Shown here in pieces: positions 40,222-48,201 of a DNA stretch of 64,000 bases (position 1 is the first letter of the stretch; each line of letters opens with the position of its first letter). The notes beneath the pieces are model-generated. The model was not told where the DNA came from. It saw nothing but the letters and a program-made list of their open reading frames with translations, and did not search any database. The stretch comes from Oscillospiraceae bacterium (GTDB lineage: Bacteria; Bacillota; Clostridia; Oscillospirales; Ruminococcaceae). The translations under genes were made by a program, and so were the position numbers. Location: the NCBI GenBank assembly GCA_009777445.1, contig WRLV01000001.1:35222-99221 (forward strand), in the 5' to 3' direction.

Positions 40222-40333
40222 CGGCAGTTGATAGTTGACAATTGACAGTTGACAGTGATTGTAGGGGACGGGCTTGCCCGTCCCGAAATAAATATTTACA
40301 AGAAACGGGACGGGCAAGCCCGTCCCCTACTGC
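40221..40333. repeat. Composite repeat copy: heptad array + 25-bp perfect inverted repeat (40261-40285 / 40306-40330)
   Basis: gtaggggacgggcttgcccgtcccg ... cgggacgggcaagcccgtcccctac. Confidence 0.95.
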
Positions 40334-40408: not shown

Positions 40409-40437
40409 TTGACAAATGAGTGTTTCTGTTGTATAAT
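40409..40437 (+). promoter_or_regulatory. Consensus promoter TTGACA-17-TATAAT of pseudopilin operon
   Basis: TTGACA 40409-40414; TATAAT 40432-40437. Confidence 0.85.
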
Positions 40438-40526
40438 GTATTATATGTAGCTGTCTTTAATTGGCAGAGCTGTTTCGTACCAACCAATTATTATTTGTCG
40501 TTGATTTTTTTGGAGGAGGCTAAATT

Positions 40527-43500
40527 ATGATTATTAGGAATTTGCAAAGGCTCAAGAACAAAAAGGGTTTCACGATTTTTGAGCTTATCGTTGTTATCGC
40601 AATCGCTGCGGTGCTTGCGGCAGTTATTGTCCCTGCTTCGTCGGCGATTATCGAAAACGGGCAGAAAACAAATCGCGCGCAGATTGCCCGAACTATTTAT
40701 GTTTCAATGCAGAACTTTCTTTCAAGAAGGCAGGTTGAGGGGAATTTGAGAGCCGATTTCACCGGTAGCTTCTTCACCCCCAACTCTGATGTCTTAAACC
40801 CCGCTATGGAGTATGTTAATCTCGTTTCAGACCAACTTGCTTCTAACGGGCGACCTTTGATTGATGTGTTCCCTCCAGATGATGCCGCTCTTATGAACGA
40901 GGCGAATGTTCGCTTTGTGAGTTTGCCGCGCGGCTATGTGCATGGTGATATCGACCCCGTGCTTGGAACTGTCAATCCCGAACGAGACAGATTTTTTGAA
41001 GTGTTGAACGAGGTTGTCCTTGACCGTGATGTTTTACAAAACGCCATTCTTATGGAGTACAACATAAGAACAGGCGTTGTTTTGTCTATTTTCTACGGTG
41101 ATGCCGGGCAAGATGAGTTTAAATATATGAATAATAACGATGCCACTGAATTGGCAGACATAAACAATGTGACCGGCGCGCGTGGGTTAGGCCCCGACGG
41201 TTATACTCTCGCTGAAGAGCGACTTCAAGGTTATTACGGGGTTACTGAGACAGGTGTCCCCCCTAACATTGAAACGGCTATTGATGGTGGCATACAGCTT
41301 TTAGACGGTGAGTTGTGGGTTTCAACCACACGCTGTAAAGACAGTGTGCTTTATGCTGTGGTTCATATTGCCAAACCCAATTTCAACCCCGCAACCGGAG
41401 CGCACGACCCATTCCCCCCATATACATTTGAGTTGATTGCCGCTGTCGGAGGAAACGTTGTGGGTTCTTCGGTTACGGTTAACTTAAACACCGTTGCGAC
41501 TGATGACTTTTATGCCGCTCTCAGCATTGGTGACAGGATTTATCGCGACAACGCAACGATTACCGAACCACATTTTGAAAGATTTGTTTGGATTATCGAC
41601 TACGTTGGTGAAGACTATCACGAAAATGGCACACGCATTGACGTAAGCTCCGGCGCGACGCAAGCCACCGATGTTCGCGCGAGACTAAGAAGAAACGATG
41701 GTGCGATTCAAACTTCCGCTGAAATTGCCAACACCCACTACGGGCGGCAGTTGATACCGGGTACGTATGAAGTAAAGTCTGCAAGGCATTTACATAACAT
41801 TCGTACTCACCCCGAATTGTCGTTCAGACAGTTAGAGGATATAGATTTAGGAAAACAATTCAACAAAATTAATAATTTTGTTCCGATTGACGGGCTTTCG
41901 GGCGTGTATAATGCTGTACGCATAGACAGAAGAGACGATTGTTTCCGTGTCGGTTGTACTAACTTTGCGCGTTGTGAAGATTGCAGCAGATATAGAATAG
42001 AAAACCTCAAAATATCAGCCCCATCGCAACCAGATGTCGGGTTATTCATGAAAAACAGCGGCAGAATTCAAGGGCTCGCTTTGTTTGACACCGAGATTAT
42101 TGCTCAAAACGGTGGCATACTTGTCGGCGAGAACATCGATGAGGGCGAGATTGCCAACATCAGAATAGAAACCGCAACCGCGACATTCAGTGGCGGCACT
42201 AACGGTGGTGCAATCGCCGGAAGCAACGAAGGTTTAATCACCGACAATGTTATACGTGGGACGGTTATTTTAGGCCCCGTCACAAACCTTGGGGGAATTA
42301 CAGGCGAAAACTCCGGTAAAGTTCAAAGAAACGCACTTGAATATTCACGAGTTTTCCGTGAGACGAGCGGTGGAAATATCGGCGGAATTGTCGGCAATAA
42401 CGCCGGTGGTGAAGTCTCTGACGTTTATTTCCTTTCATATGAGAACATTAACACGTTAGAGGCCCCATTATCATACCAAGCCGGAGGAATTGTCGGGAGT
42501 AACGTGGGTGAAGTTACTCGTGCTTTGTTCATATCGCCCGCCCCTCGCGTTTGCGGAATGTGTGATGCTTCTAACAGCGCGTGGTGCAGTCATGAGGACG
42601 TTATGAAATTCTTATACCCGACTGTAAGAAGCGGTCAAAATTCGACTCTCAGCTTCTACTTAGCGGGTGACCAATACAACGCAAAAGATGTCACGGGCGG
42701 CAGAGACTATAATTTCAGCAAAGATGCTCTTATCACCGTGAGGGGAGTAACTAACAGCGAACTCGGGACAAATAATATCTACGGTCTGCCCACAGACCTG
42801 CTCACTAAACGTTGGATTGAAATTGAAAGCTCTTCTATCATGGGTACGTCTATTGTCTTTTCAAACTGGCGCGCGCCGTCAACCGAAAGCTATAAATACC
42901 CTGTTATAACACACTTTGAAGAACCCGGATTACACCCAACCACCGGTGACAAACTGGATATTGAAGAGGTGTTTGATGGTGACCCCGATTTAGCCGGACG
43001 ACTCGGCGTTAACCTTGTAAATGCTAACTTTAACGAACCTATGATTGTCCCTGAAGAAAGGGCAACAGCGGCGCACCCCGCAGGAAAAGTGTTTAATTTC
43101 ATAGGCCCGGGGGAAAGCCATTGGCTCGCCGGTAACCCCAATAATGCAGCGGGCAACCCTGCTTATCTCACATCGGGCGCAGGTCCGGGCGACTATAACT
43201 TAACTGCCAATCGCCCTACTGTAGCCGCCACTGTAGAATCCGGTTGGGGTGGATATTATCATCAAGATTATGTTCAAGGGTGGGCTGCACGCCCCACCGT
43301 TGTTTCCCAGTTGAGCCTTACAGACCTTAGATGGAGATGGAATGCCGACCACAGAGTGCCGCCCCCGGCAGGTGTCGCACTTGGTCGCGCGTGGGAACCA
43401 TTTGAGTTTAACAAACCTATCAGCGGCACCGCCGGAAACACCAACACACCTAATGGGCGCGCACGCCGAAATTACGATGGCTCAATGGATAAGGTTTATA

Positions 43501-45806
43501 TCGAGCTTAACGCGCAAATCCCATCTACCATATACTCAATCAACCGAACAGAAGATGCCCCGGCATTTACCGAACAAAAATATTATTACGCTTTTCATCA
43601 TCTGACAAGAAATGAGGTGCCTGTTGCCACAGAAATTAGGACAGACCGCATGAATTTCTATCTGACGAAGATTAACGAGGCCGGCTCTACCTTGGCCCCA
43701 AATAATCCCGATGGCAGATACCACGCCGGTTATAGTGGGCTTACAATGATAAGACCGGCACACTCTCCACGCAATCGACCTACCGGTGGCAATGACCCTG
43801 CCGGCACCGGAAACGAGTTAACGGGGGCTAACCGAAATAACCGTTTTTATAACGTATCTGCGGCGCGCACGGTTGAATATACTCATCAAGTCCGCTCACC
43901 AAACCCGACTACAGGGGCGCTTGAGAATAGAGCTTTGAGAATCTTGCTTCGTGATTATTGGGAGGGAAAGTCTCAATTTGAAGGGTATAACTGGGATAAT
44001 ACGGTTAATAACAACATATATCTTTATGATGTGTGGATAGGAAGCCAAGGCTCAGGCAACACCGGCTCTCGAACAGGTTTCGGCATCACTTTTTGGACGA
44101 ATACAGCTATCAACACTGCTAATCTTAACATGGACGGATATGCAACAATGGGTCTTTTAGCTGCCGCCGTCACTAACGCCAACCTCAATATGAATGGAAT
44201 CACACCTACCCCCGATGCCACCCAAAGGCTCGCCGAAATTGAAAAGAGAATTATAGGCTATTGGGATGTTGCTTACGGGTGGAAGAAATACTACGGTCTG
44301 TATGAAGTGGAAGACGGGCAAGCGTATACAGAATTTGCATTTCAATCCACCGGCTCGGCAACGAACAGTGAGGTTGAAGGCAACTATTTGGCAGGGATTG
44401 AATTTGATGCCGCACCATCGTTTATGACAGTAATATCCTCAATAAAAAGAGGAACTAACGAAGCGCGGTTCGTTGAACCAGGGGATGTCTTGACTATTGA
44501 ACACTTACTCGAAAATAAAGGTGAAGTTCCAACCAACAGAATTAAACTCACAGACAGAGTTCAGTATCATGTACTGCTTAACTGCGCCATTCACGATAAC
44601 CCCGAAGACCCGCTCGGCAATACCTGCAGACTGAATTCTGCTTGCAATTTTAATATCAATGCTACCGGCAGAAGAGCAGATGGTTCTACCTTCACTGTGG
44701 CACCCATTATACAGCCACCCACTGCTGATGTTGGGTATGTGTTAACAGTTGAATTCCCCTCTACGTTTGCGTTGGCACCGGGCGAGTCTATACTCATTTC
44801 ATATAACGTTCAAGTGCGATACGGTTTGATGTCTGAGCCCGGGCTATCAACTTGGTTCTATCCGATTAGGCTTCGAGGTGAACTCGAACATTATGACAGG
44901 GTGTTCCCGCTTGAACATTTAGCCCTTGAGAAGGATAACGTTTCACCTATCGCCCATGTTGACATTAGTCAAATTCAACCCAATGCAAACATAACACTTC
45001 AAAACGGAACTCCAAGCCGCATTAACGGGCCTTTCAGGGTGACACTCACCATTGAAAACGAGGGCGAACATCAAACGCGCGGATATATAACCGCCGATAT
45101 CCCGAAAGGATTCAATGTTTCAAGGGTGCGGTCGGGTTCGTTGTTCCCAAAATTCACACTTAACGAGACAATAACATCCAAGCCCTCAATTGAAATAGAC
45201 GGTGTCAACCTAAACCCTGTCGGAACAAACGGAAGTAGCCGTGTATACACCTTTGACTTAGAAGAACCGTTGGGGTTAATGCGCAATTCGATCGGTATTC
45301 TAATGGGGGCGGATGCAAGGTATTGGTTCTCAAGCAATATAGGGCGCGCCTCGCTGAAGTTCCCGCCGGAGATAATAGCCATTACAACAAAAGCCACTAA
45401 TTTGGAATTTGAAGCCACTCCGACAAGAAGAAGATTTGAGGTAATAGATGCGAACTATAACGGCTTGCCACCTGAAATAGACAGAGCCAACTCTTATGAC
45501 GTGACATTGCCGCAGCTTGTCTTAACCAATGCCAATGGAGACCCGTTGCCGTTAGCAATCGGTAATGTCTATGCAGTAATGGGGACAACACCGGCAGGAG
45601 GGCGATTCAGAATAGAGCAGGTTCAAAACGACAGCGCAATCGTCATTACCCCAAATCAAACAACAACCGATGGCATGACCTATAACACCGGCGATTTTGA
45701 TGCCACTGTCTATTACAGAATAGAGGCAACCGCTTCAAGAGGGGCAGATGTTATCGACCTAAGCTCTCAAGGAGTTAATGAAATCACCGTTAGTTATCGG
45801 CAGTAG
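40527..45806 (+). CDS. Giant prepilin-like protein (1759 aa) with N-terminal cleavage/methylation motif, GLUG-like beta-helix repeats and DUF11-like region
   Basis: 'KKGFTIFELIVVIAIAAVLAAVIVPASSAI'; 'GGAIAGSNEGLITDNVIRG...GGITGENSGKVQRNAL...GGIVGNNAGGEVSDVYFLS'. Confidence 0.9.
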   Translation: MIIRNLQRLKNKKGFTIFELIVVIAIAAVLAAVIVPASSAIIENGQKTNRAQIARTIYVSMQNFLSRRQVEGNLRADFTGSFFTPNSDVLNPAMEYVNLVSDQLASNGRPLIDVFPPDDAALMNEANVRFVSLPRGYVHGDIDPVLGTVNPERDRFFEVLNEVVLDRDVLQNAILMEYNIRTGVVLSIFYGDAGQDEFKYMNNNDATELADINNVTGARGLGPDGYTLAEERLQGYYGVTETGVPPNIETAIDGGIQLLDGELWVSTTRCKDSVLYAVVHIAKPNFNPATGAHDPFPPYTFELIAAVGGNVVGSSVTVNLNTVATDDFYAALSIGDRIYRDNATITEPHFERFVWIIDYVGEDYHENGTRIDVSSGATQATDVRARLRRNDGAIQTSAEIANTHYGRQLIPGTYEVKSARHLHNIRTHPELSFRQLEDIDLGKQFNKINNFVPIDGLSGVYNAVRIDRRDDCFRVGCTNFARCEDCSRYRIENLKISAPSQPDVGLFMKNSGRIQGLALFDTEIIAQNGGILVGENIDEGEIANIRIETATATFSGGTNGGAIAGSNEGLITDNVIRGTVILGPVTNLGGITGENSGKVQRNALEYSRVFRETSGGNIGGIVGNNAGGEVSDVYFLSYENINTLEAPLSYQAGGIVGSNVGEVTRALFISPAPRVCGMCDASNSAWCSHEDVMKFLYPTVRSGQNSTLSFYLAGDQYNAKDVTGGRDYNFSKDALITVRGVTNSELGTNNIYGLPTDLLTKRWIEIESSSIMGTSIVFSNWRAPSTESYKYPVITHFEEPGLHPTTGDKLDIEEVFDGDPDLAGRLGVNLVNANFNEPMIVPEERATAAHPAGKVFNFIGPGESHWLAGNPNNAAGNPAYLTSGAGPGDYNLTANRPTVAATVESGWGGYYHQDYVQGWAARPTVVSQLSLTDLRWRWNADHRVPPPAGVALGRAWEPFEFNKPISGTAGNTNTPNGRARRNYDGSMDKVYIELNAQIPSTIYSINRTEDAPAFTEQKYYYAFHHLTRNEVPVATEIRTDRMNFYLTKINEAGSTLAPNNPDGRYHAGYSGLTMIRPAHSPRNRPTGGNDPAGTGNELTGANRNNRFYNVSAARTVEYTHQVRSPNPTTGALENRALRILLRDYWEGKSQFEGYNWDNTVNNNIYLYDVWIGSQGSGNTGSRTGFGITFWTNTAINTANLNMDGYATMGLLAAAVTNANLNMNGITPTPDATQRLAEIEKRIIGYWDVAYGWKKYYGLYEVEDGQAYTEFAFQSTGSATNSEVEGNYLAGIEFDAAPSFMTVISSIKRGTNEARFVEPGDVLTIEHLLENKGEVPTNRIKLTDRVQYHVLLNCAIHDNPEDPLGNTCRLNSACNFNINATGRRADGSTFTVAPIIQPPTADVGYVLTVEFPSTFALAPGESILISYNVQVRYGLMSEPGLSTWFYPIRLRGELEHYDRVFPLEHLALEKDNVSPIAHVDISQIQPNANITLQNGTPSRINGPFRVTLTIENEGEHQTRGYITADIPKGFNVSRVRSGSLFPKFTLNETITSKPSIEIDGVNLNPVGTNGSSRVYTFDLEEPLGLMRNSIGILMGADARYWFSSNIGRASLKFPPEIIAITTKATNLEFEATPTRRRFEVIDANYNGLPPEIDRANSYDVTLPQLVLTNANGDPLPLAIGNVYAVMGTTPAGGRFRIEQVQNDSAIVITPNQTTTDGMTYNTGDFDATVYYRIEATASRGADVIDLSSQGVNEITVSYRQ

Positions 45807-45829
45807 TAAAGAAAAAAGGGGTGTAAGTT

Positions 45830-47191
45830 ATGTTTAAACTTCGTTCGTTTTTCAAAGTCGGCGTGAAGCGAATTCTCGACAAGAAAGGCGCGAGCTTGTT
45901 GTTTGTTATGGCGACTATGCTTTTCTTGCTTGTCATTTGCGGCTCTGTTATGACCGCCGCCATCTCAAGCATAAATTACGGTGTCGGTCAAAGTGACACC
46001 AACCGCGTTATGGCGTTAGAGAATTCGATTCACGAGACCATTATGTTCAGCCTGTTGGCTGACATTGACGACCCTAACACGTTAGCCCACCAACTTTCGG
46101 TAAGGCTTTCAAACGGAAACACCTCTCAAGTTGAGCTTGATTTCGACTTAGACAGTTTCCCCGACATTTTTGATGACAACAGAATACAGTTAGACAGCAT
46201 ATGGATTGCGTTTGTGGGGGAAAACTCAATAAATAACGACTCTCTCCCCGCGCTGTATGAGACGGTTACCCAACACAGAGTCTGCTCTGACGACACAAAC
46301 TGCACGGCAATTGTTTATTGTGGGCCTCATAATCAAATGTGCGAGTATCTTTGTTCAAACCCCGACCACCTCTTGCACGTGTGTTGCCCACCCGAGGATT
46401 GCCCTTTAGAAGGGGCCCCTGACCACATCTGTTGTTCATCCCCCTGTTTAGAGAGCTGTAACGAATGTGTGATTACCTGTAAATATGCGCACGTTTGTTG
46501 CCCACCGGAAGATTGTCCGGAACAAGACGAACCGGGGCATGTTTGTTGCACACCAGCTTGCACTTTGTTAGAAGAGCATTTTTGCGAATTTGGTTGTATT
46601 GTCATCTGCTCCTTAGACCACTGCTGTGACCCCGATTGTCTCGATGTAGAGGTGCACGGGCACGTTTGTTGTGACTTTGATTGTCCGTTTCCACCCCACC
46701 CTACTTTGAACTGTGTCTATATTTGCGAACACGCCGATGAACACCACAACTGTGAAACAGAACCGGATGGTTGCGTAAATGTGACTGACATCAGCCACCA
46801 GTGCGACAATCCCGCAACCTGCAACTTAGCAACCAACCAAACAAGAACGTTTAGCGTTTCAGAGACAACTTTAATGTCACCGCGAATACCGCGGACAATG
46901 ACGGCAATTTCAGATATGACAGTTACCGTTCAAATTGTCGTTGACGGCGGCAGAAGAGTCACCTCAAGGGCTACATATTCCTACACAGGGAACACGGTGT
47001 CGGATTGTCAGAAAATACCCGGTGTCTGCATCCCACCCCCGGAAATTGGAATGCTTCGCCCTGATGGACCGCTTGATTCGCCCTACCCTCGCTGTTGCTT
47101 AAATGATAATGTGTTAGAAACTGATTTAGGGCTGAATTTTACCGTTGCCGGTTTCGGAGAATGGAGGTTGGTTGGCTATGACAGAGTTTAA
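45830..47191 (+). CDS. Pseudopilin operon protein, PilX-like N-terminus and Cys/His-rich central region
   Basis: 'DKKGASLLFVMATMLFLLVICGSVMTAAI'; repeated 'HVCCPPEDCP' motifs. Confidence 0.82.
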   Translation: MFKLRSFFKVGVKRILDKKGASLLFVMATMLFLLVICGSVMTAAISSINYGVGQSDTNRVMALENSIHETIMFSLLADIDDPNTLAHQLSVRLSNGNTSQVELDFDLDSFPDIFDDNRIQLDSIWIAFVGENSINNDSLPALYETVTQHRVCSDDTNCTAIVYCGPHNQMCEYLCSNPDHLLHVCCPPEDCPLEGAPDHICCSSPCLESCNECVITCKYAHVCCPPEDCPEQDEPGHVCCTPACTLLEEHFCEFGCIVICSLDHCCDPDCLDVEVHGHVCCDFDCPFPPHPTLNCVYICEHADEHHNCETEPDGCVNVTDISHQCDNPATCNLATNQTRTFSVSETTLMSPRIPRTMTAISDMTVTVQIVVDGGRRVTSRATYSYTGNTVSDCQKIPGVCIPPPEIGMLRPDGPLDSPYPRCCLNDNVLETDLGLNFTVAGFGEWRLVGYDRV

Positions 47192-47528
47192 AAAGCGTAT
47201 TGTTTCAAAAAAAGGCGAGCTTTTACTCGAAACGATTATCAGTATTCTTGCTTTGGGCATTATGGTATTGGGGATTTCGCACATCATCAGCATATCGCTA
47301 AACATAACGGGCGATGCCCTCGCCGATGCAAAACATTTGCAAGAAGAAGTCATTAACCCCGTGATGGCATGGGAATATACCGACAGTGGCATAACGGTTG
47401 CTAACTTCAGATTTGAGGGAATAACAGTATCGCATGGCGTAACTATAAATGTCAGCAGTCTCGGCGATTCAGACGACCCTTATAACAGCATAATAGCGTT
47501 TACTCCGAAGGTGGTGGGTGTGTCATGA
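47178..47528 (+). CDS. Minor pseudopilin-like protein
   Basis: 'SKKGELLLETIISILALGIMVLGISHIISISL' prepilin-type N-terminus. Confidence 0.78.
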   Translation: MTEFKKRIVSKKGELLLETIISILALGIMVLGISHIISISLNITGDALADAKHLQEEVINPVMAWEYTDSGITVANFRFEGITVSHGVTINVSSLGDSDDPYNSIIAFTPKVVGVS

Positions 47529-48121
47529 CAGAACATTTAAGTAAAATAACCAACAACAAAGGGGCGACTTTGGCTGAGCTTATAGTTGGCACAGCACTGC
47601 TCACGATTGTCATGCTCATGATTTCCATGATTTTCACCCACGCTTCTCGTTCACAACAAATGATAGTCGAGATGGCTGAGTTAGGGGCAATGATTGATGA
47701 TGTTTCAAACCCGTTGATAAGAGACTTAACGAGCGCGAGCGTTCCGTTGAGATTTGATGCATCTGATTGCATTCACATTCCCGTCTGCAACCCCGACAAC
47801 CCGACAACCTGTTGGGCGAATGGTGTAAGCAAAGTCGCAATACCCCAACCGGCATCGGTATATGCGATTGAAGACGGGCTGTTAGTCAGAACTTGCACAT
47901 CGTTGGCTTGCCCCTTGACGGGCGACCACACGCACACGGTTTTTCCGAGCGAATTTTATAAAAACAAAAACGTCAATTTCACCTGTGAGCCAACAGGCAC
48001 CATCGGCAACGCCTATCTGCTAACCGTTGTAATCGCCCAAAACGACACAGACACCGAGCTGCTGAGAAGAGAGTATGTCGTAAGACCTTTGAGGGTTAAT
48101 CTTCCGGATTCAGAGACGTAA
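47525..48121 (+). CDS. Minor pseudopilin-like protein (PilW/PilV-like)
   Basis: 'TNNKGATLAELIVGTALLTIVMLMISMIFTHAS'; overlaps previous stop by 4 nt. Confidence 0.82.
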   Translation: MTEHLSKITNNKGATLAELIVGTALLTIVMLMISMIFTHASRSQQMIVEMAELGAMIDDVSNPLIRDLTSASVPLRFDASDCIHIPVCNPDNPTTCWANGVSKVAIPQPASVYAIEDGLLVRTCTSLACPLTGDHTHTVFPSEFYKNKNVNFTCEPTGTIGNAYLLTVVIAQNDTDTELLRREYVVRPLRVNLPDSET

Positions 48122-48201
48122 TATATAGTTAGCAACTATCCACGCCCAATTGTTATATTTACAACCCACCCCCCATATATTTATACGGGGGGGGTGGTAT
48201 T

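What the first reader, a model, noticed from the sequence alone, without database searches (positions are those of the whole stretch)
40409..48121. Pseudopilin operon headed by a 1759-aa giant prepilin
Four consecutive + genes, all with prepilin-type N-termini (KKG(F/A/E)-x-(hydrophobic)), are driven by a consensus promoter. The first is about ten times larger than a typical pilin and appears to carry GLUG-like beta-helix repeats and DUF11-like domains that usually belong to wall-anchored adhesins. It has no evident LPXTG. No assembly ATPase, platform protein or prepilin peptidase is present in the window, so the machinery must be elsewhere or absent. This could be a surface appendage with a very large tip adhesin presented by minor pilins.
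Basis: partly seen in the sequence, partly recalled or inferred. Interest (0 to 1): 0.8.

Follow-up and report, generated by a model that had tools for sequence, protein, structure and literature searches.

The report
Giant pilus-tip adhesin gene cassette
A gut clostridium carries a four-gene cassette for what is probably the tip of its retractable hair-like pili, in which one pilus subunit has grown into a giant sticky protein; relatives of the cassette recur in termite-gut bacteria, often inside the operon that builds the pilus.

Summary
A perfect TTGACA-N17-TATAAT promoter precedes four co-directional prepilin genes: a 1759-aa giant, then K-like (no Glu5), I-like and J-like prepilins. The cassette is not a curiosity of one genome. 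Relatives of the giant (1665-4121 aa where complete) occur in Oscillospiraceae, Lachnospiraceae and Defluviitaleaceae genomes, nearly all apparently from termite guts, and in the isolate Proteocatella sphenisci. In 19 of 21 loci K, I and J follow in the same order. In 13 of 23 loci type IV pilus (T4P) assembly genes lie nearby. The giant has one long pilin helix, a GLUG-type beta-solenoid related to 3n6z, a head module also found on a sortase-anchored protein, and Ig-like (partly DUF11) domains; no LPXTG. Most likely it is a modular minor pilin that sits with K-I-J at the T4P tip in the H position and acts as adhesin, a monoderm counterpart of PilC/PilY1. Tip location and ligand are inferred. 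Modular pilins are known; this size, the fixed giant-K-I-J cassette and a Cys-rich K make it a new variant. In this genus it is accessory.

The parts
40409..40437 (+). Consensus sigma-70-type promoter TTGACA-N17-TATAAT
   Evidence: 12 of 12 match; sequence
40512..40519 (+). Ribosome binding site GGAGGAGG, 7 nt before ATG
   Evidence: read directly
40527..45806 (+). Giant modular prepilin, 1759 aa, probable H-position minor pilin and adhesin
   Evidence: N_methyl over cut-off; full-length homologues
40527..40736 (+). Leader peptide (residues 1-14, cleavage predicted G14|F15, Glu5 = E19) and pilin helix alpha-1 (17-70)
   Evidence: profile matches mature pilins from their residue 1; one helix 17-70 in the AF2 model
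40737..41726 (+). Pilin head and an additional beta domain (residues 71-400); contains the most conserved stretch of the family (ILMEYNIRTGVVLSIFYGDAGQDEF)
41748..42536 (+). GLUG-type parallel beta-solenoid (residues about 408-670)
   Evidence: pLDDT mostly over 90 for 490-600; 3n6z by profile E 7.8e-5 and by Foldseek E 1.7e-5
43011..44396 (+). Head module (residues about 829-1290), of the kind found at the N-terminus of Sec-secreted proteins, one of them sortase-anchored
   Evidence: hhalign 96.5%, E 7e-10 over 81 columns; L088 carries SpaA and LPMAGG
44424..45803 (+). Tandem Ig-like domains (residues about 1300-1759), partly DUF11-like
   Evidence: DUF11 in 3 of 7 homologues; Foldseek matches to PrgB and SdrD Ig domains
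45830..47191 (+). K-like (GspK/PilX-type) prepilin, 453 aa, lacks Glu5
   Evidence: 4 of 15 family members hit NCBIfam GspK, best 4.5e-5; K lacks Glu5 in 15 of 15
46310..46810 (+). Cys/His-rich insert in K with HxCCPPEDCP repeats; the whole protein has 40 Cys
47178..47528 (+). I-like (PilV/GspI-type) prepilin, 116 aa
   Evidence: G|ELLLE motif; cassette alignment A5
47525..48121 (+). J-like (PilW/GspJ-type) prepilin, 198 aa
   Evidence: G|ATLAE motif; N_methyl 17.9 bits; alignment A6
48166..48197 (+). Stem-loop (9 bp) with U-rich tail; possible terminator, weak
   Evidence: no more stable than shuffles (z -0.32)

Best explanation
The operon encodes a complete minor-pilin tip set for a type IVa-like pilus of a monoderm clostridium: a giant modular pilin in the H position plus K, I and J. 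PilD would remove the leader of each prepilin. The Glu5-less K caps the complex with I and J; the giant joins through its alpha-1 helix and connects the complex to the major pilin. PilB/PilC/PilM-O, encoded on another contig, would then extend the filament beneath it and PilT retract it. The giant's beta-solenoid acts as a stalk that carries a head module and Ig-like domains beyond the tip as the adhesive end, doing the job PilC/PilY1 does in diderms. Shown here: gene content, order and conservation, presence of the machinery in the genome, operon linkage to that machinery in relatives, domain homologies. Inferred: processing, assembly, tip position, adhesion, and that this cassette shares the C35 machinery.
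For: Giant-K-I-J order in 19 of 21 loci, and in a 20th cut off by the contig end after I. T4P assembly genes near the giant in 13 of 23 loci. In L066 (Proteocatella) the order is PilB-PilT-pilin-PilC-PilM-PilO-PilD-giant-K-I-J. In G040 the giant lies in PilB-pilin-PilD-PilC-PilM-PilO-giant-K-I-J with the only PilB found in that genome. Own genome: PilB, PilT, PilC, PilD, PilM and PilO-like on C35. N-terminus matches mature pilins exactly from the cleavage point, best E 1.9e-11; Glu5 invariant in 20 aligned giants. K lacks Glu5 in 15 of 15 and the K family hits GspK. Solenoid matches 3n6z. Head module shared with Sec-secreted proteins, one sortase-anchored. Literature: HIJK form a tip complex capped by a Glu5-less subunit (PMC10191384); PilC/PilY1 is absent in monoderms and modular pilins are the tip effectors of S. 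sanguinis (PMC9934059).
Against: No experiment. H is assigned by elimination: GspH and GspG models score equally weakly on the helix alone. AF2 confidence is moderate (pLDDT 73 and 62) and Foldseek did not return a pilin for the N-terminal model. In this genus the cassette is not beside the machinery (except PilT in G012), and the main operon has its own K-I-J. One giant locus, L062, has no K-I-J. The ligand is unknown.
Confidence: 0.75

Rival explanations
1. The giant is a membrane-anchored surface adhesin that uses the prepilin helix only as a signal anchor; K-I-J are incidental.
For: The head module occurs on non-pilus surface proteins; standalone location in most congeners.
Against: Gly/Ala at -1 and Glu5 kept across divergent giants; fixed K-I-J partners in 19 of 21 loci; embedded in T4P operons; a PilD is present.
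Confidence: 0.1
2. The cassette caps a short pseudopilus-like or secretion/DNA-uptake filament (T2SS- or competence-like) rather than an adhesive retractile pilus.
For: H-I-J-K sets also prime T2SS pseudopili; ComZ is a beta-solenoid pilin that binds DNA (PMC6561018).
Against: PilT is present in the own genome and in many giant operons; no outer membrane expected in Clostridia; the extra domains resemble adhesin domains.
Confidence: 0.1
3. The cassette is a decaying or unexpressed remnant without function in this genome.
For: Present in only 6 of 36 members of the genus, in differing flanks.
Against: All four frames open over 7.6 kb, perfect promoter, ribosome binding site, tight junctions; homologues at roughly 25-47% identity keep open frames of 1.7-4.1 kaa.
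Confidence: 0.05

Closest known systems
PilB and PilC modular pilins of Streptococcus sanguinis T4P (PMC8179133, PMC9934059)
   Same: Class III signal peptide and Glu5, pilin module with grafted adhesion or lectin and Ig-like domains, monoderm host, proposed tip complex with a Glu5-less pilin
   Different: Those are about 50 kDa; here 1759 aa (1665-4121 aa in the family), with solenoid and other domains, and with separate K, I and J partners instead of PilA
PilHIJK (GspHIJK) tip complex plus PilC/PilY1 of diderm T4aP
   Same: Four minor pilins encoded together, K without Glu5, a very large adhesive effector at the tip
   Different: Here the effector is fused to a pilin rather than being a separate beta-propeller protein; K, I and J show little sequence similarity to the known ones
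ComZ of Thermus thermophilus (PMC6561018)
   Same: Pilin with a large beta-solenoid, proposed tip location
   Different: Solenoid inserted within the pilin fold, about 380 residues, DNA-binding; here the solenoid follows the pilin module and further domains follow it
Sortase-anchored surface protein with SpaA domain (L088)
   Same: Same type of head module at the exposed end
   Different: Sec signal and LPXTG-type anchor instead of a prepilin N-terminus

Membership tests
Type IV pilins (prepilins) | Short basic leader ending in Gly/Ala, hydrophobic alpha-1, Glu5 | tested here: met
   Giant G14|FTIFE, N_methyl 25 bits over cut-off 21.2; profile aligns to mature pilins from residue 1
Type IV pilins (prepilins) | Cleavage by PilD and incorporation in a filament | not testable with these tools
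   PilD gene present; needs biochemistry
Modular pilins | Pilin module fused to extra domains not specific to T4P biology | tested here: met
   Solenoid related to 3n6z, head module shared with a sortase-anchored protein, Ig-like domains
H-I-J-K minor pilin tip set | Four minor pilins encoded together, one (K) without Glu5 | tested here: met
   19 of 21 loci; K lacks Glu5 in 15 of 15
H-I-J-K minor pilin tip set | Homology of each subunit to GspH/I/J/K | tested here: inconclusive
   GspK model hit in 4 of 15 K members; giant to GspH 18.5 bits, below cut-off; I to PilV E 0.27; no J-type model for gene 4
H-I-J-K minor pilin tip set | Location at the filament tip | not testable with these tools
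   inferred from PMC10191384 and PMC9934059
Monoderm T4aP machinery | PilB, PilC, PilD, PilM, PilN/O (and PilT) in the genome | tested here: met
   C35; a separate PilN was not identified and PilO is assigned by position and homologues
GLUG motif (PF07581) | Pfam gathering score | tested here: not met
   no hit on this protein; one of seven homologues at E 0.81; the fold resembles 3n6z
DUF11 (PF01345) | Pfam match | tested here: inconclusive
   none on this protein, 3 of 7 homologues, best 2.2e-5
PilC/PilY1 | C-terminal beta-propeller (IPR008707), not a pilin | tested here: not met
   It is a pilin and no propeller family was called; works-like claim only
LPXTG wall-anchored adhesins | C-terminal LPXTG, hydrophobic segment and basic tail | tested here: not met

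The most novel reading that the evidence does not exclude
Giant-K-I-J is an exchangeable pilus-tip cassette: among termite-gut Clostridia it moves between genomes and lets one T4P machine display either its standard tip (K-I-J of the main operon) or a giant adhesin tip, so that a single pilin fusion replaces both PilH and PilC/PilY1.
Probability: 0.35. Interest if true: 0.75.

Novelty: new variant of a known kind. Interest (0 to 1): 0.62.

Why it matters
How monoderm bacteria present adhesins on T4P without PilC/PilY1 is an open question, answered so far mainly in S. sanguinis. This family offers an answer for gut Clostridia: an H-position pilin enlarged to 1.7-4.1 thousand residues within a fixed four-gene tip set. 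It raises a testable assembly question, how a pilin whose body is many times the size of a normal subunit passes the wall and primes a filament. A cultured organism, Proteocatella sphenisci, carries a version inside its pil operon. The reuse of a head module from a sortase-type surface protein points to domain traffic between two display systems.

Tried and rejected
Pfam and NCBIfam on the giant gave only the N-terminus. The solved-structure search with the C-terminal profile found nothing, likewise for K. The I profile gave only chance-level hits. No phage relative was found. A search of 388 genomes of the class with the C-terminal profile gave only weak partial hits outside the own genome, which led to the Sec and sortase proteins. 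The Foldseek integrin hits of the C-terminal model were rejected as generic beta-sandwich matches (TM 0.1-0.14). L077 and L078 were set aside: solenoid-region matches without prepilin N-termini. The terminator stem-loop is no better than shuffles. The Cys-rich insert has no second copy in the genome. Coupling to a second PilB was considered: G012, G023 and G027 have two PilB-type genes but the own genome, G017 and G020 have one, so no rule.

Full report
Observation. The first gene encodes 1759 aa with leader MIIRNLQRLKNKKG|FTIFE. The second, 453 aa, starts KKG|ASLLF and lacks Glu5; the third (116 aa from the ATG at 47178) and fourth (198 aa) have Glu5. Genes 2-3 and 3-4 overlap, which suggests translational coupling.

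Machinery. The window is bases 35222-99221 of contig C1 of a 1.98-Mb draft genome of 91 contigs, 91.6% complete. Contig C35 carries PilT, PilB, PilD, three prepilins (J-like, I-like and a 1205-aa K-like), a PilO-like protein, PilM and PilC. PilB is single in this assembly: the third T2SSE hit (C50) is a weak partial one.

Family. Among 60 genomes searched (the own genome, 35 congeners and 24 others of the order), five congeners and one genome of another family have long matches beyond the pilin helix, in open frames of about 1.9-2.3 thousand codons. All 35 congeners have T2SSE-type ATPases including PilB, so the giant is accessory in the genus. A scan of 85,462 species genomes returned 24 loci, nearly all metagenome-assembled genomes labelled Oscillospiraceae, Lachnospiraceae or Defluviitaleaceae (their isolate codes look like termite hosts; that reading is from my own knowledge, not a tool result), plus the isolate Proteocatella sphenisci DSM 23131. 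Complete giants run from 1665 to 4121 aa. The N-terminal 430 residues and the 820-1300 block are the constant parts; solenoid-like stretches in between vary in number.

Cassette. HMMs of K, I and J, run on six-frame translations, place K, I and J directly after the giant in that order in 19 of 21 loci; L072 is cut off after I and L062 lacks them. Several of these loci were not used to build the HMMs (for example L065, L067, L071, L076) and score between about 1e-17 and 1e-46. Sequence comparison with the C35 proteins finds T4P assembly genes in 13 of 23 loci. In Proteocatella (L066) and G040 (L050) the cassette closes a full pil operon, and G040 has no other PilB.

Structure of the giant. A profile of the N-terminal 800 residues matches mature type IV pilins from their first residue (best 1.9e-11) and 3n6z, a Bacteroides ovatus protein (annotated as a putative IgA1 protease; GLUG-type by my own knowledge), over 411-637 (7.8e-5). 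AlphaFold2 (20 sequences, pLDDT 73) gives one helix 17-70, mixed sheets, then a beta-solenoid from about 488 to 670, mostly at high confidence; Foldseek returns 3n6z first. The C-terminal 959 residues (pLDDT 62) are beta-sandwich domains resembling Ig domains of PrgB and SdrD; 3 of 7 homologues have DUF11. The head block (829-1290) is related by profile comparison (96.5%, E 7e-10, 81 columns) to the N-terminal region of three Sec-secreted proteins, one with a SpaA domain and an LPMAGG wall anchor. One homologue (L063) has F5/8 type C domains.

Mechanism. In T4P the H, I, J and K minor pilins form a tip complex capped by the Glu5-less subunit, and assembly starts from it (PMC10191384). In diderms PilC/PilY1 sits on that complex; it is absent in monoderms, where S. 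sanguinis uses modular pilins (PMC9934059). The cassette fits this scheme with the giant in the H slot. That assignment is by elimination (Glu5 present, three other subunits typed K, I and J, a single further pilin in the G040 operon), since sequence models do not separate GspH from GspG here. K lacks Glu5 in all 15 members and matches GspK in four.

Accessory status and exchange. In this genus the cassette stands apart from the main pil operon, which in the own genome and in three sampled congeners has its own K-I-J with a large K (720-1205 aa). Flanking genes differ between congeners. In a tree of the N-terminal region the window groups with three congeners and then with a Lachnospiraceae sequence (96/92), while two other congeners group elsewhere. 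Horizontal exchange would explain this, but branches are long and several forks are weak, so it is a suggestion only.

Novelty. Raynaud et al. (PMC8179133) counted over 1,200 modular pilins with 264 architectures and named an 860-residue protein with 12 repeat copies as the most extreme case of multiple domains. The proteins here are two to nearly five times longer, and the fixed giant-K-I-J set was not found in the papers searched (open-access library only). I file it as a new variant of modular minor pilins.

Noticed in passing
window 46310-46810: The K subunit carries a Cys/His-rich insert with HxCCPPEDCP repeats (40 Cys in 453 aa). K proteins of the five congeners have 11-22 Cys; K proteins outside the genus have 0-3. 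Possibly a disulfide knot or metal-binding cap.
   Followed up: partly
L004 (G000 contig C35) 9298-12915: The main pil operon has a 1205-aa K-like prepilin followed by I and J but no H next to it; three congeners (L089-L091) have the same arrangement with K of 723-800 aa.
   Followed up: partly
window 40267-40324 and six further sites: Palindrome GACGGGCAAGCCCGTC occurs 8 times in the window (expected 0), including a facing pair just upstream of the operon promoter.
   Followed up: no
L088 170-3094 (-), L086, L087: Sec-secreted Clostridia proteins, one with SpaA domain and LPMAGG anchor, share the head module of the giant; Pfam and NCBIfam returned no family over that module.
   Followed up: partly
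L062 5125-15342: A 3405-aa giant prepilin without K-I-J genes after it, in 2.9 kb of downstream sequence.
   Followed up: no
L065, L067, L069: In L065 and L067 a gene with MTLYDELKARGLI (tyrosyl-tRNA synthetase-like by eye) lies just upstream of the giant; in L069 a cut-off ORF of similar kind does.
   Followed up: no
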